Assembly (NCBI RefSeq): GCF_032884065.1
Contig: NC_088873.1
Location: forward strand, 31,654,227-31,718,226
Origin: Artemia franciscana
Taxonomy: Eukaryota > Arthropoda > Branchiopoda > Anostraca > Artemiidae
Reading direction: 5' to 3'
Length of the DNA stretch: 64,000 bases
Program-made: the position numbers and the translations under genes
Shown: one piece after another, positions 999-58,003 of the stretch
Numbering within the stretch: position 1 is the stretch's first letter
Layout of the letters: every line of letters starts with the position of its first letter
The notes under the pieces: model-generated
Seen by the model: only the letters and a program-made list of their open reading frames with translations
The model's database searches: none
What the model was told of the DNA's origin: nothing

Positions 999-1085
<87 letters not shown>
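999..1085. repeat. (TA)n microsatellite between two Helitrons
   Basis: Uninterrupted TA dinucleotides directly after the CTAG end of one Helitron and before an inverted, truncated one. The tract may be the insertion target or an expanded element end. Confidence 0.95.
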
Positions 1086-1087
<2 letters not shown>

Positions 1088-2315
1088 CTCGCTGTGCATA
1101 TAAATAGATTGTAAGGTTTACCGACTCTTGAACATGCAACATATAATGGTCCATTAGAAAACAATCCGTATTCAGATCTATACCTCATGATTCTAATGAT
1201 TGTCCTTGAGCTTTGTTAATGGTGACTGCTAATCGACCATTCCCTGTGTCGCCGTCGTCATTTATATATCCCCCTGTGCCCCCCGGCGTCCCCGTTGTAG
1301 TAGTGTCCCTGTGTCCCGGTCGTCATTTGTGTCCTGGTGTCCCAGTCTGTGATTTCTCTTTGAGTGTCCTGGGCGTCATTTATATTCCTTGTGTCCCGGT
1401 GTCCCGGTCGTCATTTGTGTCCCGGTGTCCCGGTCTGTATATACATTCGTTTTTGAATTGGTCTTTTTTTTTAGTTTTTAGTTTTTTACCTTTTTTTAGT
1501 TTTTTTAGTGACACCTCATGATTCTAATGACTACCCTTGAGTTTTGTTGATGGTGATTTGCTAATCGAACATTCCCTGTGTTCCCTTCGTCATTTATATA
1601 TCCCCCTGTGCCCCCGGCGTCCCCGTTGTAGTTGTGTCCCTGTGTCCCGGTCGTCATTTTTATTCCCTGTGTCCCGGTCGTCATTTGTATCCCGGTGTCC
1701 CGGTCTGTATATATATTCGTTTTTGAAATCGTATATGATGAAATAAATTTTTTTATTTTTCCCCTTTTTTTCTTTTTAGTTTTTTTTTGGTTTTTACTTT
1801 TTTTTAGTTTTTTAATTTTTTTTTCTTTTTATTTTTTTTTATTTTTATTTTTTTTAGTTTTGTTTTTCTCCTTTATTTTTCATTTTTTCCTTTTTTTATT
1901 TTTTTCTTTTTTTAGTTGTTTTAGTTTTTTAGCTTTTTTAGTTTTTTTATTAGTTTTTAGTATTTTTTTCTTTTTAGTTTTTTTGTAGTTTTTACCTTTT
2001 TTTTAGTTTTTTTAGTTTTTTTTTACTTATGTCCTGGTCGTCACTTATACTCCCTGTGTCCCGGTCGTCATTTGTGTCCCGGTGCTTTGTTGATGGTGAT
2101 TGGTAATCGAACATTCCTTCTGTCCCGGTCGCTTTCTCTTTGAGTGTCCTGGTCGTCATTTATATTCCCTATGTGCCGGTGTCCCGGTCGTCATTTGTGT
2201 CCCGATGTCCCGGTCTGTAATTTTGTCAGTCGAAAACATGACGTCAGTCGACACACAAACATGACGTCACCCGACAGACCCACACACACACAGACAACTT
2301 ATTTATATATATATA
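1086..2315 (-). mobile_element. Truncated Helitron, minus strand
   Basis: This is the reverse complement of the family. It begins inside the 3' part (a match to the ATAAATAGATTGT segment) with no terminal hairpins, so its 3' end is missing. It then carries the minisatellite (1250-1440 and 1575-1720), a long T-rich tract and its 5' end (GACGTCA motifs and CAGACAACTTATTTA, 2250-2305). A second copy of the CCTCATGATTCTAATGA segment at about 1514 shows an internal duplication or nested fragment. Confidence 0.65.
1740..2030. repeat. T-rich (TTTTTTAG)-type low-complexity array
   Basis: Almost pure runs of T broken by AG and occasionally ACC, forming a degenerate TTTTTTAG-like repeat. Open frames in it are rich in Phe and Ser only because of base composition. 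Confidence 0.85.
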
Positions 2316-2894
2316 CTAGCTGTTGGGGTGGCGCTTCGCGCCACCCCAACACCTAGTTGGTGGGGGCGCTTCGCGCCCCCCCAAGCCCCCCCGCGCGCGT
2401 AAGTCGTTACGCGCCATATTAGTTACGCGCCATTGTAGTTGTGTCCCTATGTCCCACCTGTGAATATAGATAGATATATTATATATATGTTTTTAACTAC
2501 GTAAAACTTGCGAATATACAACATTCTTTGCTGTCCCATTGTCTGTGCATATAAATAGATTGTCAGGCTTACCGACTCTTGAACATGCAACATATAATGG
2601 TCCATGGGAAAACAATCCGTATTCAGATCTATACCTCATGATTCTAATGATTGCCCTTGAGCTTTGTTGATGGTGATTGCTAATCGACCATTCCCTGTCC
2701 CGGTGTCCCAGTCGTCATTTATATCCCCCTGTGCCCCCCGGCGTCCCCGTTGTAGTTGTGTCCCTGTTTCCCGGTCGTCATTTATATTTTTTACTTATAT
2801 CCTGGTCATTATGGCTTATGTATGGTCATTTATATTCCCTGTGTCCCGGTCGTCATTTGTATCCCGGTGTCCCGGTCTGTATACACATTCGTTT

Positions 2895-3590
2895 TTTAGT
2901 TTTGTTTTCTCCTTTATTTTTTTTCTTTTTTATTTTTTTCTTTTTTAGTTTATTTAGATTTTTAGATTTTTTAGTTTTTTTATTAGTTTTTAGTTTTTTT
3001 TTCTTTTTTGATTTTTTGTAGTTTTTACCTTCTTTTTAGTTTTTTTAGTTTTTTTTTTACTTATGTCCTGGTCGTCATTTATACTCCCTGTGTCCCGGTG
3101 CTTTGTTGATTGCTAATCGAACATTCCTTTTGTCCCGGTCGCTTTCTCTTTGAGTGTCGTCATTTATTTTTTTCTTTTTTAGTTCTTACCTTTTTTAGTT
3201 TTTTTTTAGTTTTTTAGATGAAAATTTTTTTTAGTTTTTTTCCTTTTTTTCTTTTTAGTTTTTTATTGGTTTTTACCTTTTTTTTTAGCTTTTTTAGTTT
3301 TTTTTCGTTTTTTCTTTTTACTTTTTTTTTTAGTTTTTATCTTTTTTATTTTTTTTTTATTTTTATTCTTAATTTTATTAGTTTTCTTTTTCTCTTCTAT
3401 TTTTCAGTTTTTTCCTTTTTTTTAGTTTTTTTTTTAGTTTTTAGTTTTTTACCTTTTTTTATTTTTTTTTAGTTTTTTTAGTTTTTAAGCCTTTTTATTT
3501 TTTTTTATTAGTTTTTAGTTTTTTTTGTAGTTTTTGCCTTTTTTTAGTTTTTTCAGTTTTTTTCTAGTTTTTAGTTTTTTACCTTTTTTA
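2895..3590. repeat. T-rich (TTTTTTAG)-type array
   Basis: Same T-run and AG composition as at 1740-2030. It contains a short island of Helitron minisatellite sequence (about 3060-3170), so the arrays and minisatellite blocks alternate. Confidence 0.85.
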
Positions 3591-3665
3591 GCCTAACCAG
3601 GATTTGAACCTGGGACCTTCATTCTCCGTTCTGACACCCTCTCTCACCGAGTGACTACTCCAGCA
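3591..3665 (-). ncRNA. tRNA-like sequence (pol III promoter-like) inside a Helitron
   Basis: On the - strand there is a B-box-like GGTTCAAATCC within a perfect five-pair T-stem (CCAGG/CCTGG). About 40 nt upstream is an A-box-like TAGTCACTCGGTGAGAGAG. The two ends do not pair as a seven-base acceptor stem, so this is more likely a tRNA pseudogene or tRNA-derived SINE head than a working tRNA. The following sequence is A-rich, as in SINE tails. Anticodon not assigned. Confidence 0.45.
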
Positions 3666-3849
3666 TGTTCATTTTGGTGTTTTAAATGGTATATTATTAA
3701 CCAAATTAATGTGTTTTACAATATACTAAGCATCGTCATAACAAAAAGGACGACAACTAATTTCATGACGTCAGCCGACACAGAAACATGACGTCACCTG
3801 ATCCACAGATCCACAGACAGACAACTTATTTTTATATATATAGATATAT

Positions 3850-4284
3850 ATATATATATATATATATATAGTAAAAAACTAAAAAAAAATTTAGTAAAAA
3901 ACTAAAAACTAATAAAAAAGTAAAAAAGCTAAAAAACTAAAAAAACTAAAAAAACTAAAAAAAGGTAAAAAACTAAAAAAAATAAAAAATAAAAAAACTA
4001 AAAAAAAGGAAAAAACTGAAAAATAAGCTAAAATAAAGGTAAAAACCAATAAAAAACTAAAAAGAAAAAAAGGAAAAACTAAAAAAAATTTTCATCTAAA
4101 AAACTAAAAAAAACTAAAAAAGGTAAAAACTAAAAGAACTAAAAAAGAATAAAATAAATGACGACACTCAAAGAGAAAGCGACCAGGACAAAAGGAATGT
4201 TCGATTAGCAATCAACAAAGCACCGGGACACAGGGAGTATAAATGACGACCAGGACATAAGTAAAAAAAAAAACTAACAAAACT
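3850..4284 (+). mobile_element. Inverted Helitron fragment running into the gap
   Basis: After a short (TA)n (about 3840-3870), the A-rich mirror of the T-rich array appears. It is followed by Helitron segments in + orientation (AAATGACGACACTCAAAGAG, then GGGACACAGGGAGTATAAAT). The stretch is an inverted copy of about 3055-3590 and continues into the N run. Confidence 0.6.
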
Positions 4285-19396: not shown

Positions 19397-21122
19397 AATA
19401 AGCATTCATTTCCGTTAAAACCCAAAAAATCAGTTAAAACCATCAAAATATAAAGCAAAAAGACCAAACTCAAAGAATGATGAACTTAAAAGCCTTCTTA
19501 AATTAAATGAGAGTGAAGGGCTTTAAAAAGAACCCGTGAAATATCCTGTGTGGGAAATGACTAAACCCGACAAAATAATAAAAATATTAAATAAATCTTA
19601 AAATATAGAAAACAAATTGGTTAAGCCCCTCAAAATATAAAAGGAAAATTCCCAACTCAAGGAAAGTTGAACTCAAAAGTCTTCTGAAATTTACTGACAG
19701 CGAAGAGCTCTCGAGAAAAGCTCATAAAATACTCCGTGCGGGGCATGCATAAACCCGATAAAATAATAAAATATGGAATAAATGTTGAAAATATAGAAAA
19801 AATTCGGTTAAAATTATCATAATGTAAAGCAAAAAAGGTCTAACTCAAAGAAAGATGAACTTTAAAGTCTTCTGAAATTAACTGAAAGTTAAGGGGTCTC
19901 GAAAATAACCTAAGAAATACCCTGTGTGGCATATGCATAAACCCGTGAAAATTAAAAAAAAAACATGGAACAAATCATAAAAATATAGGGAAAATTCGGT
20001 TAAAATCATCAAAATATAAAGTAAATAGGCCTAATTCAAGGAAAGATGAACTTACACGCCTTCTGAAATTGATGGACAGTCAAGGGCTCTCGAAAAGAAC
20101 CTGTGAAATATCCTGTTTGGGATATGCCTGAACCCGAGAAAATAATAGGAAATAAGAAACAAATTTTAATAATGTTTTTAAAAATTATGTTAAAACCCGC
20201 AAAATATAAAGCAAAAAGGCCTAATTACAATAAAACTGAAATTAAAAGCCTTCTGAAATTGAGTGACAGCCAAGGGCTCTCGAGAAAACCACGCGAAATA
20301 CTAAGTGTAGGGTATGGATAAACCCAAGAAAACAATAAAAATACTTAATAAATCTTAAAAATACAGAAAAAACCCTCAAAATATAAAGTAAAAACTAATT
20401 TAAAGAAAGTTGAACTTAAAAGCCTTCTGAAATTCAGTGACAGCCAAGGCCTCTTGGGAAAACTTCTTGAAATACTGTGTGTGGGATTTGCCCAAACCCG
20501 AGAAAATAATAAAAAAAAATATGAAACAAATCTTGAAAATACAGAAAAAAAATCGGTTAAAACCAACGAAATACAAAGCAAAAATGCCTAAGTAAGAGAA
20601 AGATGAGCTTAAAAGCTTTCTGAAATTGGCTGACAGTGAAGGGCTCTCAAAAAGCATCTGTGAAATACCGTGTGTGGGATACGCATAAACCTGTGAAAAT
20701 AAAAAAAAATATGAAACATATCTTAAAATATAGAAGAAATTCCGTTAAAACTCTCAAAATATAAAGGAAAGGGCCTAATTCAAAGATAGTTAAACTAAAA
20801 AACTCTCTGAAATTGAGTGACAGTCAAGGGCTCTCGAGAAACCCTCGTGAAAAACTCTTTTCACGTATTTTATTACGTGAAAAAAAAACCGCAAAACCCG
20901 CAAGCATCTGTGAAATACCGTGTGTGGGATACGCATAAACCTGTGAAAATAAAAAAAAATATAAAACATATCTTAAAATATAGAAGAAATTCCGTTAAAA
21001 CTCTCAAAATATAAAGGAAAGGGCCTAATTCAAAGATAGTTAAACTAAAAAACTCTCTGAAATTGAGTGACAGTCAAGGGCTCTCGAGAAACCCTCGTGA
21101 AAAGCTCTTTTCACGTATTTTA
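19397..21122 (-). repeat. Right arm: tandem ~190 bp repeats, opposite orientation
   Basis: The CTTCTGAAAT landmark recurs at about 19681, 19869, 20060, 20250 and 20424, giving spacings of 174-191 bp. A recent duplication with period 250 bp lies inside it: GCATCTGTGAAATACCG at 20654 and 20904, with nearly identical sequence for ~220 bp after each. Confidence 0.75.
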
Positions 21123-21260
21123 TTTATTTTATTGTATTTTTTTATTGTATTTTTAAAGGTTTTTCGGTACCTCCTTCTCGGAACTAAAACAAACCCCCTC
21201 CTCAAACAGAAATTATGGATACGACCCTGCTAGTGCTACCCTCCTGGGGCACTCTCCCCC

Positions 21261-29464: not shown

Positions 29465-30780
29465 AAGAATGAAAACGGATGCAAGTGTGCTGTGGGACAA
29501 TCTTTTTCTATGAAATAAATGTCTATGTAAACCGTTATTTTGTAGGTCTATCTGCACCTTTATAAACCATTGTGCCACCTATGGCAATACTCTCTTTGAA
29601 AATCAACGCTCAATATGCCTATGGATTTTCGATAATTCTAAAGTAATTGACTGTCTCAAAATTTTCACACAATAGTATTTTAGACCTCTTTTGGCTAGAA
29701 TTGTTGTTTTTCACAACAAAATATCTTAAAACGCCGCTTTGCTGTGGGGCAGTCTTTTTCGCAAGAATAAATGCCTATGGTAGCCGTTTATTTTATAGCA
29801 CTACCTGCACATTTACAATCGATTTCGCTACCGTACATCTCTATTGCCCCTGAAACTTGAGGCTCAATATGCGTATATATTTTCCATAATCCTTAATCAA
29901 TAACTATCTCAGAATTTTCACTTAGCAGCCTTTTGACCTTTATTGCTAGAATTGTTGTTTTGCACCGCAAAATGTCTGAAAACACCACTTTGCTGCGGGA
30001 CAATATTTTTGCCTAAAATGAATGTCCATGTTAACCGTTTGTACCGTAAGACTCCCTGGAGCCTTATAGGAGCGACAGCACCACCGTAAGGCATTACTGC
30101 CTCTGAGACTCGTGGCTCAATATGGTATAGATTTTCAATAATTCTAAATCAATTGTCTATCTCAGAATTTTCACACAAAAGCATTTTAATCTTCTTTTAG
30201 GTAGAATTGTTGTTTTGCATCCCAAAGCGTCTGAAAATACCGCTTCGCTGTAAGACGGTGTTTTTGCCTAAGATAAATGTCTTTGTTAGTGGTTTTTTTC
30301 TGTAGGATTACCTGCAACTTTAAAATGAATTATTGCCTCTGAAACTCAGGGCTCAATATGCGTATACATTTCGATAATTTTAAATCAATTAATTGTCTCA
30401 GAATTTTCACGTAATAGCTTTCATGCAGTAGCTTTCTGGCCGTCTTTTTGCTAGAATTGTAGTTTTACATCACCAAATGGTTGAGAACACCGCAATGCTT
30501 AGGAAAGTCTTTTTGGCTAAAAAATGTCTATATTAGCCGTTTATTTTGTAGGACTACCTGCACCTCTTAAAAATAAATGCGCTACCGTACGTTATTACTG
30601 CCTCCGAAACTCGAAGCTCAATATGCGTATAGATTTTCAAGAATTCTAACTCAATTGACTATCACAGAATTTTCAAACAATAGTATTTTTGGGCTTATTT
30701 TGGGTAGAATTCTTGTTTTGCAGCAACACTTACAATCTTTTTCAATACTAGAAATGTTCATACTTTGAATAAAAAGCTTC
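29465..30780 (+). repeat. Satellite-like array, ~250 bp unit
   Basis: The GCTCAATATG landmark (with small changes) recurs at about 29608, 29862, 30115, 30351 and 30616, giving spacings of 254, 253, 236 and 265 bp. Each unit also has 'TCTCAGAATTTTCAC', 'TAGAATTGTTGTTTT', 'AATGTCTATGTTAACCGTT' and 'ACTACCTGCACC' type segments. Open frames in it are repeat-derived. Confidence 0.8.
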
Positions 30781-37485: not shown

Positions 37486-39269
37486 TCAATTGAAACAAAA
37501 TAGTTTTTCATATTTAATTTCTTATAGTTTTCCAAACCGTAAGTAGGCCTAATCAAGGTATAACATGGGGTACCGTCCCTTAAACGCCAATTTAATTACC
37601 GTTAAATGTATATGTCAATTGACTCATACCTCCCTACTGTTCTAGTTTTTTTTTGCTTAAGAATTTAAATGTTGGAATGCAATTTAAATTTTGGACAAAA
37701 TCTGAGTAGTGGGACCCTTTGGTTCGGATCCGAGCACCATAGCAAATAGTTCCGATCAGACCCTAGTAACCAATAAGTATTGTCGGTTAAAGATCTATTG
37801 CGTGGACCTGGTTATTACATAATAGTTACTCGTTTACCTATGCAAATTTATTAGGGATGACGTAATTTTGCGTGTCAATGACACTTGTTTTAGTAAACTT
37901 TACTGGCTGCCAGTCAAACGGGGAACCTGTGGATGTAAATGAGGATGACATATTGCACACACGGTGGGTGTTAAATCTTAGTTAATTGTTTATTTATTCA
38001 AAATCCTAGCAACCAATGCCAAAGGGGCCCTAGCAAACAACCTGTATTATTGATTATTAATCTATTACGCGCACCTGGTTGTTCCATTGTTGTTAATTGT
38101 TTAACGCGAGTTAGACAAGGAATAGCCAGTATTTTACTAGCCAGTTATCGATCCCATATTTAAAACTGAATGACAGTGATTCACCTTATCGTTTCTTTGG
38201 AAGATATTTCTGAGGATCCTGTTTTTAATCCCCATATTTTTCTTTAGTTTTTTTTTTGTGGAATATGGAAAAATGTAAGAATAAAGATAAGTACACAAAA
38301 AAACATCAAATCAGAAAAAATCTAGAAACAGATAGGCGTATGAAAAGTGCAAGGAATATAGACAAAATCTATAATACATACAAGCATATGAAAAATAAAA
38401 GGAATATTGAAAACAAATAAAGTGAGAGCGTGAGATGACCAATTAACTCGAAATTTTTTATTTTACTACGAAAGTAAGACCTAATTCAAATTTGTTGTGA
38501 AGTACCCTATTGAAGCAAATAATTAACCCATTAGATGAGATAACAATAAATAGATTAATATCCATGGACTGTGACAGTTCTTAACACTAGGCATGCACTA
38601 CCCCATGTTACTACTGGTCCAATGGTCTTTCTAACTCTAGGCACAATTACAGTCCAGGATACTCCCAACCCATTGTGATACTCCCGTGACAAAATGATGC
38701 TTTAAATCCATTGCTTTATGTTTTGACAAACCCTCCCCTCATGATACTTCAACACAGTTCATGCCACTGTTGCAATATGTAGCTGCCCTGTAGCATTAAA
38801 CCGAGACTAGTCTTCCTGATTGCTCATATCCTTTCAAATTACGGTGCAAAAGCTTTTTTTGAAGCTACTGAATCTTTGGTAAAGTTTCTTGAAGACGCCA
38901 GTATTATTGATTATTGATTTATTATGCACACCTGGTTGTTATGTTATACTATTCCCATCCTATAGCACCCATTGGCAGGCTTGTGGCACCTATTATCGTT
39001 CCTAAGGCATTATCCGACATCCTTGATATAAACGATGTTTTAACTCATTTGGTTTGTATTTTCGAGTCGGCATGTGTATTCACAAGCCAACCTCTTCGTG
39101 ACAGCCCATGGGATTTAATGGACCATTGACACCTATTATCTGACAAAAATAACCGTATAAACTAAAAAACTGGGTAGACGAAAAAACCCTAAGGGCCTCC
39201 TCCAAGATATATTGTTTGCATTAGTCAGATAATAATTAGCCTAAACGGCTTCTCGAAGACAAATTGCTA

Positions 39270-39500
39270 ACACTGGACAGATGCTAGTCCCAGTTCCAGT
39301 TTCAGCAATTCTTTCCCCGGTCACAGCCGTTCCAGATCCAATTCTGTCGGATCCCAAACCAGCTGCAGTTTCAGTCTCGATTCAACTGATTCTAGCTCCA
39401 GTCCCACCTGTTCCAGTTCCCTCAGTTCCAGTTCTGGATCCACCACTCCTACCCCTGATTCCACAGTTCTAGTAATTCCGGTTCTAGCAATTCCACTTCG
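39270..39500 (+). repeat. CCAGTTC-type low-complexity block in the left arm
   Basis: Six-base-like repetition CCAGTTCCAGTT and variants, giving a Pro/Val/Ser-rich frame by chance. The mirrored block is at about 42555-42780 in the right arm. Confidence 0.7.
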
Positions 39501-39624
39501 AGTTCCACCAGTCCCAAGATCTTTTTGTGGCTGCCCCTGTTGCATTCTGTGGCTGGTCATCGACAATAGCCAGTTCATTGTATGTTTAGATTAGAATTAA
39601 TAGTGCACTGGAGGGAAAATCAAA

Positions 39625-40175
39625 TATATATTACTTTAAAAAGTGAAGATGAAATATTTCAAGAAAGTATATATAAATGATAAAGTCATCTTAGCATTAG
39701 ATGCTCACAAAGACAAATATCTGAACTATAAAACAAGCAATGATTGGAATCTTATTGGAAATGTATGCGTGCGTTTTAATTACAGTGAGAGATTAAATTT
39801 CGTCAGAGTACCGAAAAATTCGACTCTTATGATGGTGAATATGTGAAATTAACATTTCCAGAGATAATAGTGCTTAAAGAGAATGCAAACATAAAACTAT
39901 AATTTGATGATTAGGGTCAACATTTTGCTACTACTGGTGGTAACAAATTACTCGTTGATGCATCTAATCGCCATCTTTCTTGTGTTAGCATCCAAAAGAA
40001 GACAAGGAAAAGACAAGCCTACAGCTCTACAAATGTCACAAGCCATATCTTATCTATGTGCCGGAAGTGCAATCTATGTAAAACAAATTTCGTAATAAAC
40101 GCTGAAACCGTAAGTAAACTAAAAAAGACATTAGCAGATAATATAAAAAAGAATATAAAGATGAATTGATGAAAA
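39625..40175 (+). pseudogene. Decayed unidentified ORF, left palindrome arm
   Basis: Recognisable stretches, in more than one frame: KVYINDKVILALDAHKDKYL, a segment with VRFNYSERLNFVRVPKNS, then TFPEIIVLKENANIKL and ATTGGNKLLVDASNRHLSC. The right arm (- strand, about 42470-42020) holds a diverged version with INDKIILTLSADNSKY and LLATVGGNALAVDRSYYHLS. Both copies have stops and frameshifts. Shared peptide similarity in both arms suggests a once-coding gene of the element. I cannot name the family. Confidence 0.4.
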
Positions 40176-40729
40176 ACAAAGCACCTGCGAAAGTTCCTAG
40201 TGCCATGGACAGTTTGCTAACACATTTAGTCAATGAACCCAATAATACCAACAATAAAATATATAATGAGGCTGTAGCTGAAATCATGTTAAAAGTCATC
40301 TATGACACCAAAATGGAATAAGTACCAACTCACGATAAAATATGATGGATTATTTATAGAACTATTCCAAAGTATTCATTTTTTGGATTATATCCTATAT
40401 GTCATAATTTCAATGAAAATATTTTATTACATTACTTTGTTATGTCGTCATTATTTTTTAGGCTACGCTGGCAACTTCAAGGTTTAAAAGGTTTATTCAA
40501 AGATCAGAGTTGCAGGAACAGGAATATTCAGATACATAGTTAGTACTACCGGATTCATAGGGGTACTATTAGAGTCTGAGATAAGTTACCAGAGTTTTTA
40601 CCAGATTCTGAGAGAGATGGACAGAATTTTTTTACGGTTGCTGGAACATGAACAGGCATTTTCTTTCAAGTTAGAAAGACATAAAAGGGATTTTTTCAGT
40701 TTATAAAACCAGCAAAAAATAATTTTTCA

Positions 40730-41222: not shown

Positions 41223-41745
41223 AGATATGTGTGTCTGTACGTTTGTGTCTGTGCGTCTTTTTGTCTGTCTGTCTGTGTGTCTGTACATGTGTGCATGAGT
41301 GTTTTTTTGTCTGTCTGTGTGTCTTTTCGTCCATTGTGTGTCTGTCTGTGTTTCTACCAACCATGTTATATGTCTGCCTGTCTTTGTGTCTCTGTGTGTG
41401 TGCACATTTTTATCTGTCAATGGTCTTTTTTGTCTGTCTCTTTATGTCTTTTTGTCTGTCTATATATCTCCGTGTCTGTGTATGTATGTGTTTGTGTGTG
41501 TATTTTTGTCCGTCTATTCGTATTTTGTGTGTATTTGTATGTGAGCGTGTGTGCATGTCTTTTGTCTGTCTGTGCGTCCTTTTTGGTTGTCTAACTACAA
41601 GTCTTTGTGTTTTTACGCAAACGTCTATGTGTCATTACATCTGTGTGTCTGTCTGTGTAACCTTTTGTTTTTCTGTCTGTGTGTCGTACGTGTGTGTCTG
41701 TGTGTCTTTTCGTCTGTCTGTCTATTTAAAATACTATAAAATACT
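41223..41745 (-). repeat. (TGTCTGTCTTTTTGTCTG)n microsatellite, right half of the loop
   Basis: The complementary sequence takes over abruptly at about 41222, so the loop is itself an inverted repeat. Open frames of up to 205 codons here are low-complexity artefacts. Confidence 0.92.
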
Positions 41746-42019
41746 TCATCATATTTTCTCTTGAGGCGGTACTTATTCCAATTCGGTGTCATAGACAACT
41801 TTTAACATGGTTTCTGCTACAACCTCATCACACATTTTATTACTGGTATTATTAGATTTATTGATTGTATCTCTGAGTAAACATTCGATGGTACCAATAA
41901 CATTTGCAGGTTTTTTGTTTTATCAATTCATCTCTTTATTTCTTTGTTGTATTATCTACTAATGTCAATGTCATTTACTTATTCTTTCACTGTCTATTAC
42001 GATATTATTTTACTTAGAT

Positions 42020-42470
42020 TGCAGTTTCGGCAAATAGATAAGATACGGCTTATGATATTGGTGCAGCAATAGACTTGTCTTCTTCTTGTCTTTTTTTAGT
42101 GTTAATACCAGAAAGATGGTAATAGGATCTATCAACGGCTAATGCGTTACCACCAACTGTAGCAAGAAGTTTGCCTTCGTCATCAACTAATAGTTTTATG
42201 TTTGCATTCTCTTTCAGCGCTGTCATCTCTAGAAATGTTACTCTTGCATATCCAACATAATAAGAAATGAATTTTTTCGGTACTACAGAGAATTTGATCT
42301 CTAACTGTCATGATAACGCACGCATACACCCCCAATAAGTCACCCATTATTACTTGTTTCATAGGTCGAATATTTGCTATTATCAGCACTCAATGTTAAG
42401 ATGATTTTATCATTTATAAAAAAAAATTCTTGAAATATTTCCTCTTCACTTTTTAAAATACGATGTTAGT
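42020..42470 (-). pseudogene. Decayed unidentified ORF, right palindrome arm
   Basis: On the - strand, the diverged partner of the ORF at 39625-40175. Shared peptides include YINDK/FINDK, KENANIKLL and a Gly-Gly-Asn segment followed by a Val-Asp. Stops are frequent. Function unknown. Confidence 0.38.
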
Positions 42471-43836
42471 AATTATCCTTCCAATGCACTATTATTACTA
42501 ATCGAAACTTATAATAAACTGACTACTCTCAATATCCTGCCACAGATTACCACAGGAGGAAGCCTCGTAAAAAAATTGAGACAACTGGAGTCGGAGCGGA
42601 ATCACTGGAGCCGAAGCTATGGAATGTGGACCAGAAGTGGCAGCACTGGAACCGGAACTGACGGAACTGGAACCAGAGGGACGGAAGCTGGAATCGGTGG
42701 AATCGAGACTGGAACTAGAACCGGGATGGGATCCAGAAGAACTGGAACTTGAATCGCTGTGACCGGGGGAAGAAGCGGCTGAACTAGGATTGGCATCTAT
42801 CCAGTCTAAGTAATCTGTCTTGGGGAAATCCCTTAGATTTCTCGCTATCTGACTATTTCATACAATACGACTTAAACAAGGCCCTTAGGCTTTTTCCTAT
42901 CTCTCCAGTGTAAACGATGTGTATTGGAGAATGGTCTTGTGAAACATCATGGGCTATCACGAAGGGATTTGCTTGCGAAAACATAGAATTGTCTGAAAAT
43001 GCCTTAGAAATGATAATGTGTGCTATAGGGTGCCACAGACTCGCTAAAGAGTACCACATGGCAAGAATTACTATTTTGCATCACGAGGGAGTGGTCTGCG
43101 AAGACACAAAACAACGGATTTAAAGCCAATACAACATAACAACCAGGTATACATAGTAAATCAACACTCAATAATAAAGGCGTTTCAAAGGAATTCAGCC
43201 AAATACTCACTAGTTTAAGAAAAAGTGCTGGCACCGGGATTTGAAAAGATATAGGCAATTGGGGAGGCTTGTCTCGGTTTAAAAAAGGGCTGTCTCTGTG
43301 AAAAGTTCCAAACGATACCAAGTGGCAGCTAAGTTGTACCACGGGGGCGCGAACTATATTGATGAATCATGAGGAGATGGCTTATAAAAATATCAAACAA
43401 TGGATTTAAAGCATCATTTTTGTTACGCGGGGTATCTAAATAGGTTAGGAATGTCCTGGATTTTGATTCATGGGGGAAGAAGGCTCATGTTACCAAGAGT
43501 CGCACGGGGTTTCAGCGTACCAGGTGTTAAGAATAGTCATGGTCCATAGATGGTCATTCATTTCTTGTTATTTTATCCATTAGTATCATTATTTGCTTCA
43601 ATGGGGTAATCCCATAGAAAATTTGAATTAGTTCTTACGTTCCTAATAAAATAAAAATTACGAATTAAATGATCATCTAACGCTATGATTTTACCTGTTT
43701 TCTATATTTCTTCCGTTTTCCATACGCTTGCATGTTTTCCGATTTTTTCAATGTTTCTTGCACTTTTCATAGGCCTATCTATTTTTCAGTTTTTGTCTGT
43801 ATTCCCTGTGTATACCAGGAAGAATACTTATCTTCC

Positions 43837-43850
43837 ATTCCTACTTTTTT
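43837..43850 (+). repeat. Target-site duplication, left copy
   Basis: ATTCCTACTTTTTT, repeated at 49520-49533. It lies just left of the 123 bp array. Confidence 0.7.
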
Positions 43851-43869
43851 TTTTACTAATTTTTTACTA

Positions 43870-45400
43870 TAGTTTTTCTATAGAGTGTTGGCTTGTGAGA
43901 TGTTTCAAACAGGCTAAATTGGCTACTTAGGTCTACTTTTGCAGTATTAGCAGAGTTTCTAATAAGTTTTCTTCTTCATTTGAATTCTCAAAGGTGTTTC
44001 TATAGGGTGTTGGCTTGTGAGATGTTTCAAACAGGCTAAATTGGCTACTTAGGTCTACTTTTTCAGTATTAGCAGAGTTTCTAATAAGTTTTCTTCTTAA
44101 TTTAAATTCTCAAAGGTGTTTTCTATAGGATGTTGGCTTGTGAGATGTTTCAAACAGGCTAAATTGGCTACTTAGGTCTACTTTTGCAGTATTAGCAGAG
44201 TTTCTAACTAGTTTTCTTATTCATTTAAATTCTCAAAGGTGTTTTCTATAGGGTGTTGGCTTGTAAGATGTTTCAAACATGCTAAATTGGCTACTTAGGT
44301 CTACTTCTGCAGTATTAGCAGAGTTTCTATTAAGTTTTCTTCTTAATTTAAATTCTCAAAGGTGTTTTCTATAGGATGTTGGCTTGTGAGATGTTTCAAA
44401 CAGGCTAAATTGGCTACTTAGGTCTAATTTTGCAGTATTAGCAGAATTTCTAATAATTTTTCTTATTCATTTAAATTCTTAAAGGTGTTTTCTATAGGGT
44501 GTTGGCTTGTGAGATTTTTCAAACAGGCTAAATTGGCTACTTAGGTCTACTTTTGCAGTATTAGCAGAGTTTCTAATAAGTTATCTTCTTAATTTAAATT
44601 CTCAAAGGTGTTTTCTATAGGGTGTCGGCTTGTCAGATATTTCAAACAGGCTAAATTGGCTACTTAGGTCTACTTTTGCAGTATTAGTAGAGTTTCTAAC
44701 TAGTTTTCTTATTCATTTAAATTCTCAAAGGTGTTTTCTATAGGGTGTTGGCTTGTGAGATGTTTCAAACAGGCTAAATTGGCTACTTAGGTCTACTTTT
44801 GCAGTATTAGCAGAGTCTCTAATAAGTTTTCTTCTTCATTTAAATTCTCAAAGGTGTTTTCTATAGGGTATTGGCTTGTGAGATGTTTCAAACAGGCTAA
44901 ATTGGCTACTTAGGTCTACTTTTGCAGTATTAGCAGAGTTTCTGACTAGTTTTCTTATTCATTTAAATTCTCAAAGGTGTTTTCTATAGGGTGTTGGCTT
45001 GTGAGATGTTTCAAACAGGCTAAATTGGCTACTTAGGTCTACTTTTGCAGTATTAGCAGAGTCTCTAATAAGTTTTCTTCTTCATTTAAATTCTCAAAGG
45101 TGCTTTCTATAGGGTTTTGGCTTGTGAGATGTTTCACGCAGGCTATATTGGCTACTTAGGTCTACTTTTGCAGTACCAGCAGAATTTCTAATAAGTTTTC
45201 TTATTCATTTAAATTATCAAAGGTATTTTCTATAGGGTGTTGGCTTGTGAGATGTTTCAAACAGGCTAAATTGGATACTTAGGTCTACTTTTGCAGTACA
45301 AGCAGGGTTTCTAATAAGTTTCCTTCTTAATTTAAATTCTCAAAGGTGTTTTCTATAAGGTTTGGCTTGTGAGGTGTTGCAATCAGGCCAAATGGGCTAT
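43870..45400 (+). repeat. 123 bp tandem array, 13 units
   Basis: The landmark TGTTGGCTTGTGAG (with single changes) falls at 43886, 44008, 44131, 44254, 44377, 44500, 44623, 44746, 44869, 44992, 45115, 45238 and about 45361. The first spacing is 122 and all others are 123. Every frame on the + strand has a stop in each unit, so it is not coding. From unit 3 to unit 12 units alternate between CTTATTCATT and CTTCTT(A/C)ATT, so the higher-order period is 246 bp. Confidence 0.95.
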
Positions 45401-45423
45401 TTATTAGTTAATTATTAGTTAAC

Positions 45424-45710
45424 ATGCTAAGTTTTGGTAGAGGAAAATAGAGCTTTTTTGTGTTTTCTTTATTTTAGGGTATAAATTAAAAGGAAAGTTG
45501 TACTTTATTACAATTATTAATTAGTTGCAATATTTAGTTAGTTATTAGTTTGCATGCTAGGTTTTAGCAAAGGACAACATAGCTTGTATATGTTATTTTT
45601 GTCCTTTACTTTATAGTCTAAATTAAAGTAAAGTTGCAATTTACTGCAACTATTTATTAGTTGCATTAGTTAGTTAATTATTAGATAATCATGCTAGGTT
45701 TTGATGGAGG
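45424..45710 (+). repeat. Second short tandem array, ~134 bp units
   Basis: Two to three diverged units marked by TGCTA(A/G)GTTTT at 45424, 45556 and 45692 (spacings 132 and 136). Each has TTAGTTAGTTA-like and AGGACAACA-like parts. It joins the 123 bp array to the 5' UTR. Confidence 0.7.
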
Positions 45711-46587
45711 ACAACAGATAGGGGAATGCCCTACAGATAGGTAGAGTAGATCCATATGAGGCTTAGACCAAGTAGGACCTTGTCCCAGTGGGGCCCATAA
45801 TAGAAACTGGGAAACCCTCCCCTGGGGGTCATAATTACAGGTGGAGGAGGAAGAAGGTCCCTCAAATGTACACTCAGCAGGGCCAACTGCCGTGTTCACA
45901 CGTCAGATGAGTTACAAACCTTCTCCCAGTAATTGGTTAAATTCCATGGTGAAGCAGAAAACCATCGTGGGAGGATCCTCTATAGGAGGACAACTGCGGC
46001 AGGGCGTAAGATCCAGATTTATGGACAACGGCCTCTGTAAAGGGCTGCCTCGACCCTTTCGGGGTACCTGCAAGACTGGGAAACTTGCGGTCAATTTTTC
46101 CCACTTGAGGACTGGCGCCCCTCGAGGAAATTATAGCCTAGTAAACAACACAGCATTCGTACGGGATTCTGATTATTGGATGATTTTCTGGGCTTGGTTT
46201 GTTTAGTTGGGCGTTTTCGGGCTGAAAAACCTCTTCCTAGCTAATTTATCTACAATGGGCTGCCTCCCCGTAGTAGCATAATATTTGTAGGCATGAATAC
46301 ATAATGAGTCGGAGGTAATAGGCTTGGGACTGTCTCTGCAGGATTTCGATTCTTGTTGATAGAAGAGCATCGCCAAGTGCTGAAAACCATGTTGTGACCA
46401 AGATGGGCCCAGGATTGCACAAAGCCTCCAACTTACTGGAGGTCCCAGGGATTTCTTGCTGTCTGGTTCTAAGCCGGCTTAAGCGCTTCGGTGTAGACTT
46501 GAGAAAATACGTTGGTCCCCATCCTGCACTGGTATCCGGGATCACTGCTTTTCTTGAGGCTAAAATAATTTCAAAGATTTAAAGAAC
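45711..46587 (+). other. 5' UTR of the retrotransposon
   Basis: Higher GC than its surroundings and ends directly at the ORF start. A 121-codon open frame at 45841-46206 includes CKGLPRPFRGTCKTGKLAV. It may be a small ORF or just leader sequence, as no domain is recognised. Leader-like GGGGTACCTGCAAGACTGGG at about 46060. Confidence 0.5.
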
Positions 46588-48036
46588 ATGAAAATTGAAA
46601 CTTGGAATGTTACGACGTTAAAAAATGACTATCGCATCGACATTTTGACTGACGAATTCAGACGGTTTGAACTGGATTTATTAGGAGTTTCGGAAACTCA
46701 TATCCCAGGGGTAGGAAGCATGAAATTAGGTGACATAGAATTTGTTTACTCAGGCAGGAAGGATAGGGTACATAGACAGGGAGTAGGGCTCGTGATGAAT
46801 AAGGAAGCTGCTAAGTCTTGTTTAGGCTGGGAAGGTATTAATAATAGAATACTAATTGCTCATTTTATGACTAAAAAGTTTAGGGTATCAGTTATAGTAG
46901 CATATGCCCCCATTGAACCAACTGATGGAGATACTAGTGACTCAGATAAATTTTACTTACAGTTACAGGAGCAAACAGACAGGGTAGCGGGTAGAAATAT
47001 GGTGTTTTTGCTAGGAGATTTTAATGCTCAGGTCGGTAGAAATAGGGATAGATGGTATCCAAGCCTAGGTAAATTTGATGTAGGAAAAGAAAACAGTAAT
47101 GGCTATAGGCTTTTGCAATTTTGTAGGTATAACAACCTAGTTATAACCAATACGGTGTTTGGTCACAAAATGGCCCATAAGTTGACATGGTATTCACGTG
47201 ATGGTAAGACAGCAAACCTTATTGATTATGTTATTGTAAACAGAAGACTAGCAGGATCAATACAAGATACTAGGGTGTATAGGAGTGCCGGTATTGATGT
47301 TAAAAGTAAAGATCACCATCTAGTAGTGTCTAAGGTTAATTTAAAGCTGAAATTTCGAAAGGGTAACTCCCTCCCGGAAAGTTATGATGTTGGTAGACTT
47401 CAGGATGAAAATTTGAGAAAAAAATTCCAGGAACAGTTGAGTACTAAACTTGAGGGTTTAAAATTTGACAATGTGGAAGATGGATGGAATAATTTCAGAA
47501 AAACAATTTGTGAAGTTGCTGATGATGTCCTAGGGAAGAGTGCTAAGACTGCAACTAGGAATATTAGTGAAAAAGCTTTAGGTTTAATAAAGAGTAGAAG
47601 GGGTTTGTATAAGAATTACCTGAGTGATAGGTCGTATGAAAACAAAAGGAATGTAAAGAAATTGGAGAAAGCATTAAAATATGAACTAAGGAGATGTGAA
47701 GTGGAGGCGATGGATAAAATTGCTGAGGATCTGGAATATGCGGCTAGACGACACAATAGTAAAATATTTTACTGGCATGTTAATAAATTGAAAGGGAGTA
47801 GCCAATCCGGACTAGTCCCAGTTAAAGATAGAAATGGGGCCACAATTAGTGATAAGGAAAAAGTTAAAGAAAGGTGGGTGGAACATTTTGAGAATGTGCT
47901 AAACCGAGATACAGTTGCAGGAAAAGATATAGATGAAAATGAAAAAGTTTGTGATACCTTGGACGTGAAGGAAGATTTGTTTAGTGAGGAAGAATTAGCG
48001 ACAGTACTAAAAGGATTAAAAGGCCCCAGGTGCTGA
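46588..48036 (+). pseudogene. Retrotransposon ORF, endonuclease and linker part
   Basis: 482 codons from ATG. The endonuclease domain takes up residues 1-255: TWNVTTL (Asn7), GVSETHIPG (Glu36), IVAYAPIEPT, FLLGDFNAQVG (Asp144, Asn146), IDYVIVNRR (Asp213) and SKDHHLVVS (Asp242, His243). All catalytic motifs are intact. A charged linker (about 255-440) follows, then the start of the RT domain (VKDRNGATISDKEKVKERWV). The frame is lost at about 48025, inside the motif that normally reads KAPGADS: one base is missing or added, and the next frame continues APGADSM. Confidence 0.85.
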
Positions 48037-48226
48037 TAGTATGATTAATGAGTTTCTTAAATATGGTGGCTCTGAGCTTAGGAATAAGCTACTGAAGATT
48101 ATGAACATGATTTTTGAAAAAGGGGAAGTACCCAATGATTTTAGGAAAACCTTTATTAAACCACTGTATAAGAAAGGTGACAAGAGTGAGTGTCGTAATT
48201 ATCGGACATTAGTCTGGTCTCTGTAG
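48023..48226 (+). pseudogene. Retrotransposon ORF, RT finger segment in a shifted frame
   Basis: Continues the protein from APGADSMINEFLKYGG to FIKPLYKKGDKSECRNYR. A single missing base near 48205 (CGGACATT where CGGGACATT-like sequence is expected) breaks the frame again. The following frame resumes ISLVSVGSKLLSN. Confidence 0.8.
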
Positions 48227-49503
48227 GTAGCAAATTACTGAGTAATATGATACTTTTTAGACTGAGACATGGTGTAGACAAAGTTTTAAGGGAAGAACAA
48301 TGCGGTTTTAGAAAAGGTAGAGGATGTGTCGACCATGTTTTCACTCTTAGGTTAATAATTGAGAAGTCCCTTCGTTGTCAAACACCTTTGGTCCTTAGTT
48401 TTATCGATTATGAGCAAGCTTTCGATTCTGTTGATAGAACAGCGTTAACAAAGGTCTTATGGTTATATGGTATACCAGAAAAATACATTAAAGTGATTTG
48501 GGCTATGTACGAGAATAATAATGCTGCGGTTAAGGTAGGAAATGAGGTTAGCAACTGGTTTTGTATTAAATCAGGAGTTAAGCAGGGTTGTGTTTTATCT
48601 CCCTTTATATGGATCATTTTGATGGACTTCGTCTTAAGGAGCACTGGAAAGGCAATTACAGACCATGGAATCAAATGGGGAGGAAGAACTCTCCTGGACT
48701 TAGATTATGCTGATGATTTAAGCATATTAGATGAAAGTGATAGCAAAATGAATGAATTTTTAGAGGTTTTACGAGTTCAGGGTGATAAAATACGCTTGAA
48801 AATTAATGTTAAGAAGACTAAGTCACTAAGGCTAGGAATAAGTGAAGATGAACATGTGACATTAGGTAACAAAAAGATTGATCAGGTTGGGAGCTTCAGT
48901 TACCTTGGTAGTATTATTAGTAAAGAGGGTGGGAGCAGTGAAGATATTAAAAGTAGAATAGCTAAAGCTCAGGGTGTTTTTTCACAGTTAAAAAAAGTTT
49001 GGAAAAATAGAAAGATAAGTCTACAAACCAAGATTAGAATATTGGAAGCTACAGTGATGACAGTGGTCAAATATGGCTCTGAAGCATGGGCACTCCGAAA
49101 AGCAAATGAAAATTTACTAGATGTTTTCCAGAGAAATTGCCTACGGATTGTTCTGGGTACCCGGCTGACTGACGGTATTTCAAACAGTAGGTTGTACGAA
49201 AAGTGTGGTTCAATCCCGCTTTCTGGGGCTATAATGAAAGAAAGGTTGAGATGGCTAGGCCACGTTCTACGGATGAAGGATGACAGATTACCGAAGATTG
49301 TCCTTTTTGGCCAACCGTCTGGGGCTACACGGAAAGCAGTTTGTCCTTGTCTGGGTTGGGAGGATGTCATAAATTAAGATTTAAAGGAAATGGGAACTTC
49401 CTGGGAGGGTGTAAAGAGGGAGGCTTTAAATAGATTAGGTTGGAGGAGGAGCGTGCGTAGCTGTGTTGGCCTCACGTGGCTTGGTGCTGCAGTGAGTTAT
49501 TAG
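48207..49503 (+). pseudogene. Retrotransposon ORF, RT catalytic part and C terminus
   Basis: The RT palm is intact: FRKGRGCVDHVF, LSFIDYEQAFDSVDR (catalytic Asp), GVKQGCVLSPFIW and LDLDYADDLSILDES with the YADD box unbroken. The thumb and C-terminal region run SFSYLGSIISKEGGSSEDIK to RLRWLGHVLRMKDDRLPK. A TAA at 49375 replaces a sense codon. The same frame continues DLKEMGTSWEGVKREALNRL and stops at 49503. Only three lesions break the protein, so decay is recent. No separate RNase H domain was seen. Confidence 0.85.
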
Positions 49504-49519
49504 TAGTAGTAGAAGTAGT
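49501..49519 (+). repeat. (TAG)n-like 3' tail
   Basis: TAGTAGTAGTAGAAGTAGT between the ORF stop and the right target-site duplication. Essentially no 3' UTR. Confidence 0.7.
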
Positions 49520-49533
49520 ATTCCTACTTTTTT
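49520..49533 (+). repeat. Target-site duplication, right copy
   Basis: ATTCCTACTTTTTT, identical to 43837-43850. The palindrome arm resumes here. Confidence 0.7.
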
Positions 49534-50555
49534 ACTTTTTTCTACTTTTTCCATTTTTCATATTCTGTTTTCCAGTGTTTTTTTCTGTGTTCAGCTATTT
49601 TTGCTAGTAGAAGTAGAACCTGCTGTTTTAAGCCGAAGTAACCTCTCCTGCGTTTAAAACAGAGTTTGGAGAAAAACTAGAGAAAAATATGGGTAATAAA
49701 AAGAATCTTCGAAATGATCTTCTAAAGAAACGATAAAGTGAATCATTGTCATTTAATTTTAAATATGGGTTCGATAACTGGCTAATTAACTCGTTTCCAC
49801 AATGATGCTTACGTAATGCCTCACTGAGTTCAATACCTAACTTGAGCTGTCATTGTCTAGCTTTCTTCAAACAATTAATAACAAAGGAATAATCAGGTGT
49901 GCGTGTAAATCAATGAGGCCGAAGTAACCTGTCCTGGGCTTTAAACTGAGTTTTAAAAAAACTAAAGAAAAATATGGGGAATAAAACGGGATCCTCATAA
50001 ATACCTTCCAAAGAAACTATAAGGTGAATCATTGTCATACAGGTTTAAATATGGGATGGATAACTGGGTAGTGAACTCATTTGCGCAATGATGCATATGT
50101 AAAGCCTCACTTACTTCCATACCTAACTAAAGCTGTTGTTGTCTAGTTCACGTCAAACAATTAATAACAAAGGAATAAACCAGGTGTGCGTAATAGATTA
50201 ATAATCAATAATACTTGCTGGTTCCTAGGTCCCATTGGGATTGGTTGCTAGGGCTTTACATTAGCAAACAATTAACTATGATGTAACACCCACGTGTACG
50301 CAAGATCTCATCTTCATTTACATCCAAGGGTTCCTCTCTTGACAAGCGGCCCGTAAGATCTGTCAAAAAAGTGTCATTGACACTCAAAATTACGTCATCC
50401 TCAGTAAATTAGTAGAGGTAGTCTAAACCACTAGCTATTATGTAACAGCCAAGTGTGCACAATAGATCAATAATTAATAATGCTTGTTGGTCGCTTTGAC
50501 GCTCTGATCGGATCCAGAGGGCCCCCACTACTAATCTGAATATACTGTCAAAATT
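49520..50555 (-). repeat. Right arm of the giant palindrome, outer part
   Basis: Reverse complement of about 37680-38270, for example CTAGAGAAAAATATGGG (49677) against the mirror at about 38240. The outer piece also has an internal direct duplication of ~290 bp not matched in the left arm: GAATCATTGTCATTTAATTT at 49740 and a similar segment at 50027. It ends near CGGATCCAGAGGGCCC (50508), mirroring 37690-37720. Confidence 0.78.
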
Positions 50556-52674: not shown

Positions 52675-53004
52675 TTAATGGTATTTAAGACATTTGTTCA
52701 CGGAAAAATGTTTAATTGTAAAATGACTGAAGAACCTACAATGGCAACAGCCGAGGAAGCTGCTCAAAGAGTTTATGCCAAAAAACTTGCTGCTGATAGA
52801 GAAAGTAAGAAAAGAAAGCGTTCCGAGGAATCACAAGAACAGCAAGAAAACAGGCTTGCGGCTAAAGAACGCAAAACCGCGCAGTTAGATGAAAATCCAC
52901 CTGGACAGCGAGAGTCAAAACATATCAAAACTGAAAATGATAGCGATGATGATTGGGTTTGGGATTTTGACTTGGATAAGGTCATCAATGCCTACCAGAT
53001 TTAA
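52633..53004 (+). CDS. Helitron-borne small protein with STPR-like 23-residue repeat
   Basis: 123 residues. The N-terminal ~25 residues are hydrophobic ([18 protein letters not shown]), and a charged helix-prone region follows. [20 protein letters not shown] repeats 23 residues later as LAAKERK, matching the 23-residue period of STPR (score and three peptide repeat) domains, which bind AT-rich DNA in the silkworm factor FMBP-1. Similar repeats precede the Rep domain in arthropod Helitron proteins, so this may be the N-terminal remnant of one. The C terminus is very acidic ([14 protein letters not shown]) and ends in a normal stop. I chose the ATG at 52633; an upstream GTG in frame is less likely. 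A deleted copy is at 73-271 and a (TA)n-truncated one at 55326-55603. Confidence 0.55.
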
Positions 53005-53129
53005 GTTAAAAAAACAAAGGTTCGTCGATATGTACTTCATAGTGACGCTGAAAAATAAAGAAGAAAAAGAAAACTGAAAAAAGAAAAAAGGTAAAAAACT
53101 AAAAAAAAAAACTAAAAAGAAAAAACACT

Positions 53130-53510
53130 CAAAGAGAAATTACAGACCGGGACAAAAATGACGACCGAGACAGAGGGAATATAAGTGACGACCGGGAACC
53201 TCAAAGAGAAATTACAAACTGGGACACCCGGACACAAATCACGACCGGGACACAGGGAATATAAATGACGACCGGGACACAGGGACACAACTACAACGGG
53301 GACGCCGGGGGCACAGGCGGGATATATAAATGACGACCGGGACACAGGGATTGTTCGAATAGAAATTACAGACCGGGACACCGGGACACAAATGACGACC
53401 GGGACACCGGGACACAGGGAATATAAATGACGACCGGGACACTCAAAGAGAAATTTCAAACTGGGACACCGGGACACAGGGAACATAAATGACGACCGGG
53501 ACACAGGGAC
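53130..53510 (+). repeat. 26-27 nt Helitron minisatellite
   Basis: Same three-subunit structure as 395-770. Open frames on the - strand are repeat artefacts. Confidence 0.85.
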
Positions 53511-53843
53511 ACATCATTAGAATAATGAGGTATAGATCTGAATACGGATTGTTTTTCCTATGGACAATTATATGTTGCATGTTCAAGAGTCAGTAAACCT
53601 GACAATCTATTTATATGCACAGACAATGGGACAGCGAAGAATGTTGTATATTCGCATGTTTTACGTAGTTAAAAACATATATTTATATCTATCTCTATTC
53701 ACAGGTGGGACACAGGGACACAACTACAATGGCGCGTAACTAATATGGCGCGTAACGACTTACGCGCGCGGGGGGCTTGGGGGGGCGCGAAGAGCCCCTT
53801 CAACTAGGTGTTGGGGTGGCGCGAAGCGCCACCCCAACAGCTA

Positions 53844-55325
<1,482 letters not shown>

Positions 55326-55328
<3 letters not shown>

Positions 55329-55603
55329 CTTTCTCTATCAGCCGCAAGCATGTTTTCTTGCAGTTCTTGTGATTCCTCGGCACGCTTTCTTTTCTTACTT
55401 TCTCTATCAGCCGCGAGTTTTTTGGCATAGACTCTTTGAGCAGCTTCCTCGGCTGTTGCCATTGTAGGTTCTTCAGTCATTTTACAATTAAACATTTTTC
55501 CGTCCACAATCTCCTTACAATTAAGAATTTTTCTTTGAACGATTTTCTTAAATACCTTTAATGACGTCATCGTAATAACAAACATGACGACAACTAACTT
55601 CAT
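55326..55603 (-). pseudogene. Truncated Helitron STPR-like ORF
   Basis: Reads [20 protein letters not shown], a 10-residue insertion relative to the 52633 copy (region [11 protein letters not shown]), then [19 protein letters not shown] and a second unit [18 protein letters not shown]. After that only Tyr-Ile repeats from the TA tract follow. The 23-residue spacing of LAADRES is exact here too, supporting the repeat. Confidence 0.55.
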
Positions 55604-55674
55604 GACGACATGACGACATGACGTGACGTCACTCGACAGACATAACCCACAAACAACTTATTTATATATATATA
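55326..55674 (-). mobile_element. Helitron 5' part, minus strand, truncated by (TA)n
   Basis: Carries the 5' end (TTTGTGGGTTATGTCTGTCG and TGACGTCA sites) and the first two-thirds of the ORF, then breaks into (TA)n inside the second STPR-like unit. Confidence 0.65.

Positions 55675-58003
<2,329 letters not shown>

What the first reader, a model, noticed from the sequence alone, without database searches (positions are those of the whole stretch)
43837..49533. A 123 bp satellite array appears to be the 5' end of a non-LTR retrotransposon
The palindrome arm is interrupted exactly from 43851 to 49519, and ATTCCTACTTTTTT sits on both sides. Everything between, namely thirteen 123 bp units, two to three ~134 bp units, leader, ORF and 3' tail, therefore seems to have inserted together. 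Tandem promoter monomers are known at the 5' end of mouse L1, but I know of no described case for this endonuclease-RT type in arthropods. It could explain how such elements seed satellites.
Basis: partly seen in the sequence, partly recalled or inferred. Interest (0 to 1): 0.82.

Follow-up and report, generated by a model that had tools for sequence, protein, structure and literature searches.

The report
LINE with tandem-repeat 5' end
In the brine shrimp genome a block of 123-base tandem repeats is the front end of a mobile genetic element, carried along when the element copies itself, much as in mouse L1 but in what looks like a different branch of the LINE family.

Summary
The array is real and is the mobile 5' end of the LINE. 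Scaffold lengths identify the genome as Artemia franciscana. Array DNA alone as query gave 39 places by my grouping. All 39 are attached to this LINE: 37 run into its leader, 2 directly into its ORF. Two more searches, whose queries included leader sequence, raise this to 87 of 87, one with the LINE 3' end in antisense.

Arrays hold 1.4 to about 51 units; 51 start phases show no clustering. Target-site duplications of 69, 14, 13 and 9 bp bracket array plus LINE in 4 of 36 tested copies; most copies show no match of 8 bp or more. A young array-bearing subfamily is 99.4% identical in its leader; the three copies read have an intact 972-974 aa ORF ending in the (TAG)n tail.

Array-free copies exist: 18 of 35 leader-selected copies, some with other leaders, one of them a piece of another RT gene. 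So the 5' end turns over. Promoter function is inferred, not shown. It is a new variant of the L1-monomer kind, in an RTE-like element.

The parts
43837..43850 (.). left copy of the 14-bp target-site duplication ATTCCTACTTTTTT
   Evidence: exceeds 342 of 342 mismatched flank pairs
43851..43873 (+). T-rich stretch between the duplication and the first recognisable monomer; origin unclear (filler or decayed monomer)
43874..45403 (+). array of 12.5 monomers of 123 bp: the 5' end of the LINE
   Evidence: attached to the LINE at 39 of 39 array-selected places
45404..45702 (+). 2.2 copies of a 134-136-bp unit, the spacer of leader type A
   Evidence: found between array and leader in the type A copies
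45703..46587 (+). 5' leader; the part from 45728 is common to leader types A, B and C
46588..48036 (+). N-terminal piece of the broken ORF, EEP endonuclease (Exo_endo_phos)
48247..49377 (+). C-terminal piece of the broken ORF, reverse transcriptase (RVT_1); three type B copies read have one intact frame
49501..49519 (+). (TAG)n tail; in the three intact copies the ORF stop is the first TAG of the tail
49520..49533 (.). right copy of the 14-bp target-site duplication

Best explanation
The window holds one insertion of an RTE-like non-LTR retrotransposon of Artemia franciscana whose 5' end is a variable-length array of 123-bp monomers, followed by a short spacer, a leader of about 860 bp, a single endonuclease-RT ORF and a (TAG)n tail. 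The array moves as part of the element (shown by anatomy at 87 places). New copies lose array length at random points during target-primed reverse transcription (inferred from start phases without clustering). Most likely the monomers carry the internal RNA polymerase II promoter, so that copies truncated inside the array still keep some promoter units, as proposed for mouse L1 (inferred, not shown). Array length is regained by unequal exchange or slippage between monomers (inferred). The lineage has also exchanged its 5' leader more than once, probably by template switching or recombination (the different modules are shown, the mechanism is inferred).
For: 39 of 39 array-selected places carry the LINE; 87 of 87 over three searches, two of which had leader sequence in the query. 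The same array-spacer-leader junctions recur at loci whose outer flanks are mostly unrelated. Duplications of 14, 9, 13 and 69 bp bracket array plus LINE, flush or within about 21 bp of the array. Monomer number varies from 1.4 to about 51. Start phases are unclustered: Rayleigh p 0.92 for 51 starts. Young type B copies are 99.36% identical in the leader, and 3 of 3 read have an intact 972-974 aa EEP-RT ORF. 3' ends share a (TAG)n tail: 33 of the 34 stretches fetched.
Against: No transcription or reporter data, so promoter function is untested. Start phases do not cluster as they do at the transcription start in mouse type A monomers. Most copies show no duplication of 8 bp or more: 26 of 36, and in the second set only 2 of 17 reach 8 bp, against 14 of 272 mismatched pairs. 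18 of 35 leader-selected copies lack the array, including a young subfamily, so the array is not indispensable. The empty-site search did not complete.
Confidence: 0.75

Rival explanations
1. The array is a pre-existing satellite into which, or next to which, the LINE inserted; the association is local or reflects a target preference.
For: Tandem arrays are common in this window, and some LINEs prefer repeats (general knowledge).
Against: The array-LINE junction is the same in many copies at loci with mostly unrelated flanks. No LINE-free array was seen in 39 array-selected places. Duplications lie outside the array in 4 copies, not between array and LINE.
Confidence: 0.03
2. The array is part of the element but a passenger: it is carried because transcription starts upstream in host DNA or in a leader remnant, and it has no promoter role. 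Its length reflects slippage only.
For: Start phases show no preferred site. Young array-free copies with other leaders have also multiplied. Concentration of shared monomer variants in one 41-bp stretch, which would hint at a conserved core, is only weakly significant (11 of 15 sites, scan p 0.022 with a post-hoc window).
Against: The 123-bp monomer family is kept in an old and in a very young subfamily behind two different spacers, which is easier to explain if it helps.
Confidence: 0.2
3. The LINE-array unit spread mainly by DNA-level segmental duplication, and retrotransposition contributed little.
For: Some places share outer flanks or starts: L032 and L113 over 1.5 kb, and three copies at C3:29.07-29.23 Mb start at the same array base.
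Against: Among 26 array-bearing copies no sequence within 100 bp upstream of the array is shared, except one 71-bp stretch (L031/L033). 3' ends lie at the (TAG)n tail in differing flanks. Duplications bracket some copies.
Confidence: 0.03

Closest known systems
Mouse L1 (L1Md A, Gf, Tf) with tandem 5'UTR monomers and tether
   Same: Variable number of tandem monomers at the extreme 5' end, separated from the ORF by a non-monomeric stretch; copies start within monomers; subfamilies differ in their 5' ends (PMC9022269 and PMC6454616, passages).
   Different: Single-ORF element with an almost absent 3'UTR and a (TAG)n tail instead of two ORFs and poly(A); monomers of 123 instead of about 200 bp; arrays up to about 51 units; no clustered truncation site.
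RTE clade LINEs (RTE-1, SR3, lepidopteran RTE)
   Same: Single EEP-RT ORF of 972-974 aa (990 aa in HmRTE-e01), extremely short 3'UTR made of simple repeats, variable target-site duplications (PMC2887409 and PMC1291365, passages).
   Different: The passages I saw describe a 5'UTR of 276 bp and no monomer array; here an array of up to several kb and exchanged leaders.
Non-LTR elements with 5' tandem repeats outside mammals: fungal FoTeRs and MoTeRs; trypanosome SLACS and Xenopus Tx1 (the repeats of the last two recalled)
   Same: Variable-number tandem repeats concentrated 5' of the RT ORF (FoTeR: PMC12857005, passages).
   Different: FoTeRs are telomere-associated and have a restriction-like endonuclease. 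This element has an EEP endonuclease and its sampled copies are dispersed.

Membership tests
RTE clade | single ORF with EEP endonuclease followed by RT | tested here: met
   3 of 3 type B copies read have one frame of 972-974 aa; Exo_endo_phos and RVT_1 in the one scanned
RTE clade | extremely short 3'UTR of simple repeats | tested here: met
   the ORF stop is the first TAG of the (TAG)n tail; tails seen in 33 of 34 stretches
RTE clade | target-site duplications of variable length | tested here: inconclusive
   9, 13, 14 and 69 bp bracketing 4 of 36 copies; most copies none of 8 bp or more
RTE clade | RT falls in the RTE clade in a phylogeny | not testable with these tools
   no clade-labelled RTE sequences held; nearest solved structures are LINE-1 ORF2 and R2 proteins
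L1-type monomeric 5'UTR | tandem monomers at the 5' end, variable in number, mobile with the element | tested here: met
L1-type monomeric 5'UTR | monomers act as promoter | not testable with these tools
   no transcript or reporter data
L1-type monomeric 5'UTR | truncation sites cluster near the transcription start (as in mouse type A) | tested here: not met
   51 starts, Rayleigh p 0.92; 21 type A starts, p 0.85, some loci shared with the first set
free-standing satellite DNA | arrays with their own flanks, independent of a mobile element | tested here: not met
   0 of 39 array-selected places are LINE-free; the searches list only the best matches, so diverged free arrays could be missed

The most novel reading that the evidence does not exclude
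An arthropod RTE-type LINE evolved, independently of mammalian L1, a tandem-monomer internal promoter that buffers 5' truncation. The lineage turns over its 5' end quickly by capturing foreign modules (a fragment of another element's RT gene, a microsatellite-bearing repeat, an unrelated spacer of about 270 bp) while the same 123-bp monomer family is kept, or re-acquired, in its youngest subfamily. Each insertion plants a ready-made array of up to about 50 units.
Probability: 0.5. Interest if true: 0.75.

Novelty: new variant of a known kind. Interest (0 to 1): 0.6.

Why it matters
If the monomers are promoters, the L1-style solution to 5' truncation arose more than once, in very different LINEs, and a crustacean genome with near-identical young copies offers a natural test bed. 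It also gives a direct route by which satellite-like arrays are scattered through a genome, and a case in which 5' leader exchange can be followed step by step within one young family.

Tried and rejected
Empty-site proof from the palindrome arm: the arm is too diverged near the junction to place the border. Empty-site search of the genome with joined flanks: not completed. Transcription-start mapping from truncation phases: no cluster. A conserved promoter core in the monomer: weak, scan p 0.022 with a post-hoc window; a scan of a 44-bp low-variation window was not significant (624 of 2000 permutations). Target-site duplications as a universal mark: not found; the second set of 17 copies shows no clear excess apart from L172. 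Distant flank matches of L024 (13 bp) and L012 (15 bp), as signs of extra 5' sequence gained at insertion, exceed all 600 mismatched pairs but are suggestive only; L020 (16 bp) lies in a repeat-rich stretch that also matches its own 3' flank and stays ambiguous. A looser flank comparison gave 9-bp hits in 64 of 423 mismatched pairs, so its short hits mean little. Ten literature searches (one search was for the species) listed no paper whose title or abstract describes an RTE or arthropod LINE with a 5' monomer array. The library holds only openly licensed papers, and I read passages of six, none in full.
Full report
What is there. The window lies at G000:C11:31654227-31718226. Two scaffold lengths of this genome, C2 67,337,973 and C17 45,252,357, equal the longest scaffold and the N50 printed for an Artemia franciscana assembly (PMC11492255, passages; that table gives 6486 scaffolds and 1,270,721,445 bp, against 6468 and 1,270,528,402 here, and here C1 is longer than C2, so the held version differs slightly). 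Between two copies of ATTCCTACTTTTTT lie, in order, about 21 bp of T-rich sequence, 12.5 copies of a 123-bp unit, 2.2 copies of a 136-bp unit, a leader, an endonuclease-RT coding region broken in this copy, and a (TAG)n tail.

Is the array part of the LINE? Array DNA alone (44000-44400) was used to search the genome: 386 candidates, 40 scored, 210 matches, not all of them listed. I grouped the listed rows into 39 places including the window. For 37 I fetched 1.6 kb downstream: 34 run into the LINE leader, 2 (L042, L052) directly into the LINE ORF, and 1 (L051) was still array. A further stretch showed that this last one also reaches spacer, leader and ORF. L012 and the window complete 39 of 39. 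A query of a type B array, its spacer and 127 bp of leader scored 40 places of 2417 candidates: 39 reach the leader, and the other (C7:28070378) is joined head-to-head to the LINE 3' end in antisense, like a twin-priming inversion. A query of the window's own array, spacer and part of the leader scored 40 places of 3229 candidates, all with leader sequence: 32 in one alignment, 8 as a separate match at the same place. These two queries contain leader sequence and so favour such places. By my count the three searches hold 87 distinct places, all attached to the LINE. Some are not independent: three at C3:29.07-29.23 Mb share a start, and several lie on small contigs that may be duplicates.

The reverse test. 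The leader query gave 4111 first-look candidates, 40 scored. For the window and 34 others I saw the 5' side: 17 of 35 carry the array and 18 do not. Of the 18, eleven have another leader (L010, L013-L017, L019, L022-L024, L026), four (L011, L018, L020, L027) are truncated within the remnant of the 134-bp unit, and three (L032, L038, L113) stop inside the type B spacer; L032 and L113 share 1.5 kb of flank. Of the five not fetched at that stage, two appear with arrays and three were not examined.

Leader types. Type A (window): array, 134-136-bp units, a short stretch, leader. Type B: array, a spacer of 170 bp unique sequence plus a TG/TA microsatellite, leader. Type C: no array; the last 99 bp of the 134-bp unit are fused to a short stretch (GAAGAAATATTAAGAACAGTGC...) and, further upstream, either to a fragment of an RT gene of another element (C1: L014, L015, L019, L022, L024) or to a microsatellite-bearing repeat (C2: L013, L016, L017, L023, L026); L010 keeps only the short stretch. 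The RT assignment: the 67-aa piece of L015 matches RVT_1 with E 5e-5, 23.5 bits, below Pfam's cut-off of 29.6; the other 78-aa piece has no hit, and the 67-aa piece has no relevant match among solved structures. Part of the type B spacer matches the flank of L026 at 80% over 81 bp, so it too may come from a dispersed repeat. In a tree of 61 leader sequences (L041 dropped as short), type A is the diverse group (mean identity 95.7%), and B (99.36%, lowest 95.92) and C (99.0%) are young and form one group beside A, with some C rows among B. FastTree with midpoint rooting was used and support values were not printed, so the order of B and C is open. Full monomers: 56 A and 106 B, identities AA 94.1, BB 95.6, AB 93.1%.

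Array length and start. Fifteen fetched copies carry 1.4 to 9.4 monomers. Twenty-five type B copies whose leader-anchored alignment starts inside the query carry 8.0 to 16.2; a few of these have further array pieces upstream (for example C3614 and C13:43.75 Mb). Twenty-four type A copies carry 3.6 to 11.8. The longest, from coordinates, are about 48 (C1:57.23 Mb, type A) and about 51 units (C1:2.86 Mb, type B). Start phases within the monomer show no clustering: Rayleigh p 0.92 for 51 starts and 0.85 for 21 type A starts after removing three likely duplicates, some loci being in both sets. That fits loss of array length at random points in reverse transcription. It differs from mouse type A monomers, where a common truncation site marks the start of transcription (PMC6454616, passages).

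Target-site duplications. First set: 19 array-bearing copies with both ends (L033 and L109 dropped for microsatellite 3' flanks; L030 and several others lacked a usable 3' end). Eight share a match of 8 bp or more between the 3' flank and the last 60 bp before the array, against 8 of 342 mismatched pairs; not all of these matches sit at the junction. Second set: 19 pairs examined, 17 with a tail; 2 reach 8 bp, against 14 of 272 mismatched pairs. Duplications at the junction: window 14 bp, L034 9 bp, L124 13 bp, and L172 69 bp at 97% identity ending 2 bp from the array. L012 has a 15-bp match 164 bp upstream of the array. Most copies, including young ones, show none, so duplication is an inconstant mark. 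Co-mobility therefore rests mainly on the shared internal junctions and the differing outer flanks.

The protein. Three type B copies, chosen for untruncated alignments and so not at random, have one open frame of 974, 973 and 972 aa; the stop is the first TAG of the tail. EEP and RT domains were confirmed in the one scanned. Nearest solved structures are LINE-1 ORF2 and R2 proteins. Single ORF, EEP plus RT, an almost absent 3'UTR of simple repeats, and duplications of variable length match the RTE clade as described in PMC2887409 and PMC1291365 (passages). A clade tree could not be run, so I write RTE-like.

Mechanism. Shown: array, spacer, leader and ORF move as one unit; arrays vary in length and start phase; leaders differ between subfamilies. 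Inferred: the array holds the promoter. The argument is that DNA upstream of the transcription start is not carried to new loci, so transcription must begin in or upstream of the array in copies that pass it on; an internal promoter then has to lie in it or downstream. Passive carriage from an outside promoter is not excluded. Also inferred: lengthening by exchange between monomers, and leader exchange by template switching or recombination.

Known or new. Tandem 5' monomers are known in mouse L1 and, per PMC9022269 (passages), in some other vertebrate L1s (rat, hyrax, horse, elephant, opossum). Fungal FoTeRs carry variable repeats 5' of the RT (PMC12857005, passages). SLACS and Tx1 repeats are recalled. 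My literature searches (listed in Tried and rejected) showed no RTE or arthropod example. I therefore call it a new variant of a known kind.

Noticed in passing
G000:C7:28070378-28073800 (L140): Type B array and spacer head-to-head with the LINE 3' end in antisense, joined at a TA microsatellite: looks like a twin-priming inversion.
   Followed up: partly
G000:C11:41914355-41918612: Two successive blocks of array plus spacer in one place, the second followed by the leader: a second-order duplication of the 5' end.
   Followed up: no
G000:C3:31716399-31718990 (+) and C3:31732030-31734342 (-): Two array-bearing copies in inverted orientation about 13 kb apart whose leaders group together in the tree; possibly one inverted duplication.
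   Followed up: no
L167 (C2150) and L172 (C3853): Same 3' flank but different 5' flanks and array lengths; L172 has a 69-bp duplication. Either haplotypes or a rearranged copy.
   Followed up: partly
L012:284-463, L024:710-1174: Matches of 15 and 13 bp to the 3' flank lie 164 and 451 bp upstream of the recognisable element, as if extra sequence was joined to the 5' end at insertion.
   Followed up: partly
window 38309-40359 and 41734-43803: Old inverted repeat of about 2 kb per arm, roughly 75% identical, in whose arm the element sits; a 286-bp unit at 49632-50191 is duplicated next to the insertion.
   Followed up: partly
window 100-4284 and 52833-57801: Two related blocks (up to about 95% identical over several hundred bp) of T-rich 'TTTTTTAG' arrays, TA microsatellites and 'GTCCCGGTCGTCATTT' repeats near both ends of the window; L142 (C20) shows the same kind of repeat.
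   Followed up: no
window 19424-20858, 20652-21124, 29597-30279: Further tandem arrays with periods of about 187, 250 and 253 bp; none matched the 123-bp array in the window self-comparison.
   Followed up: no
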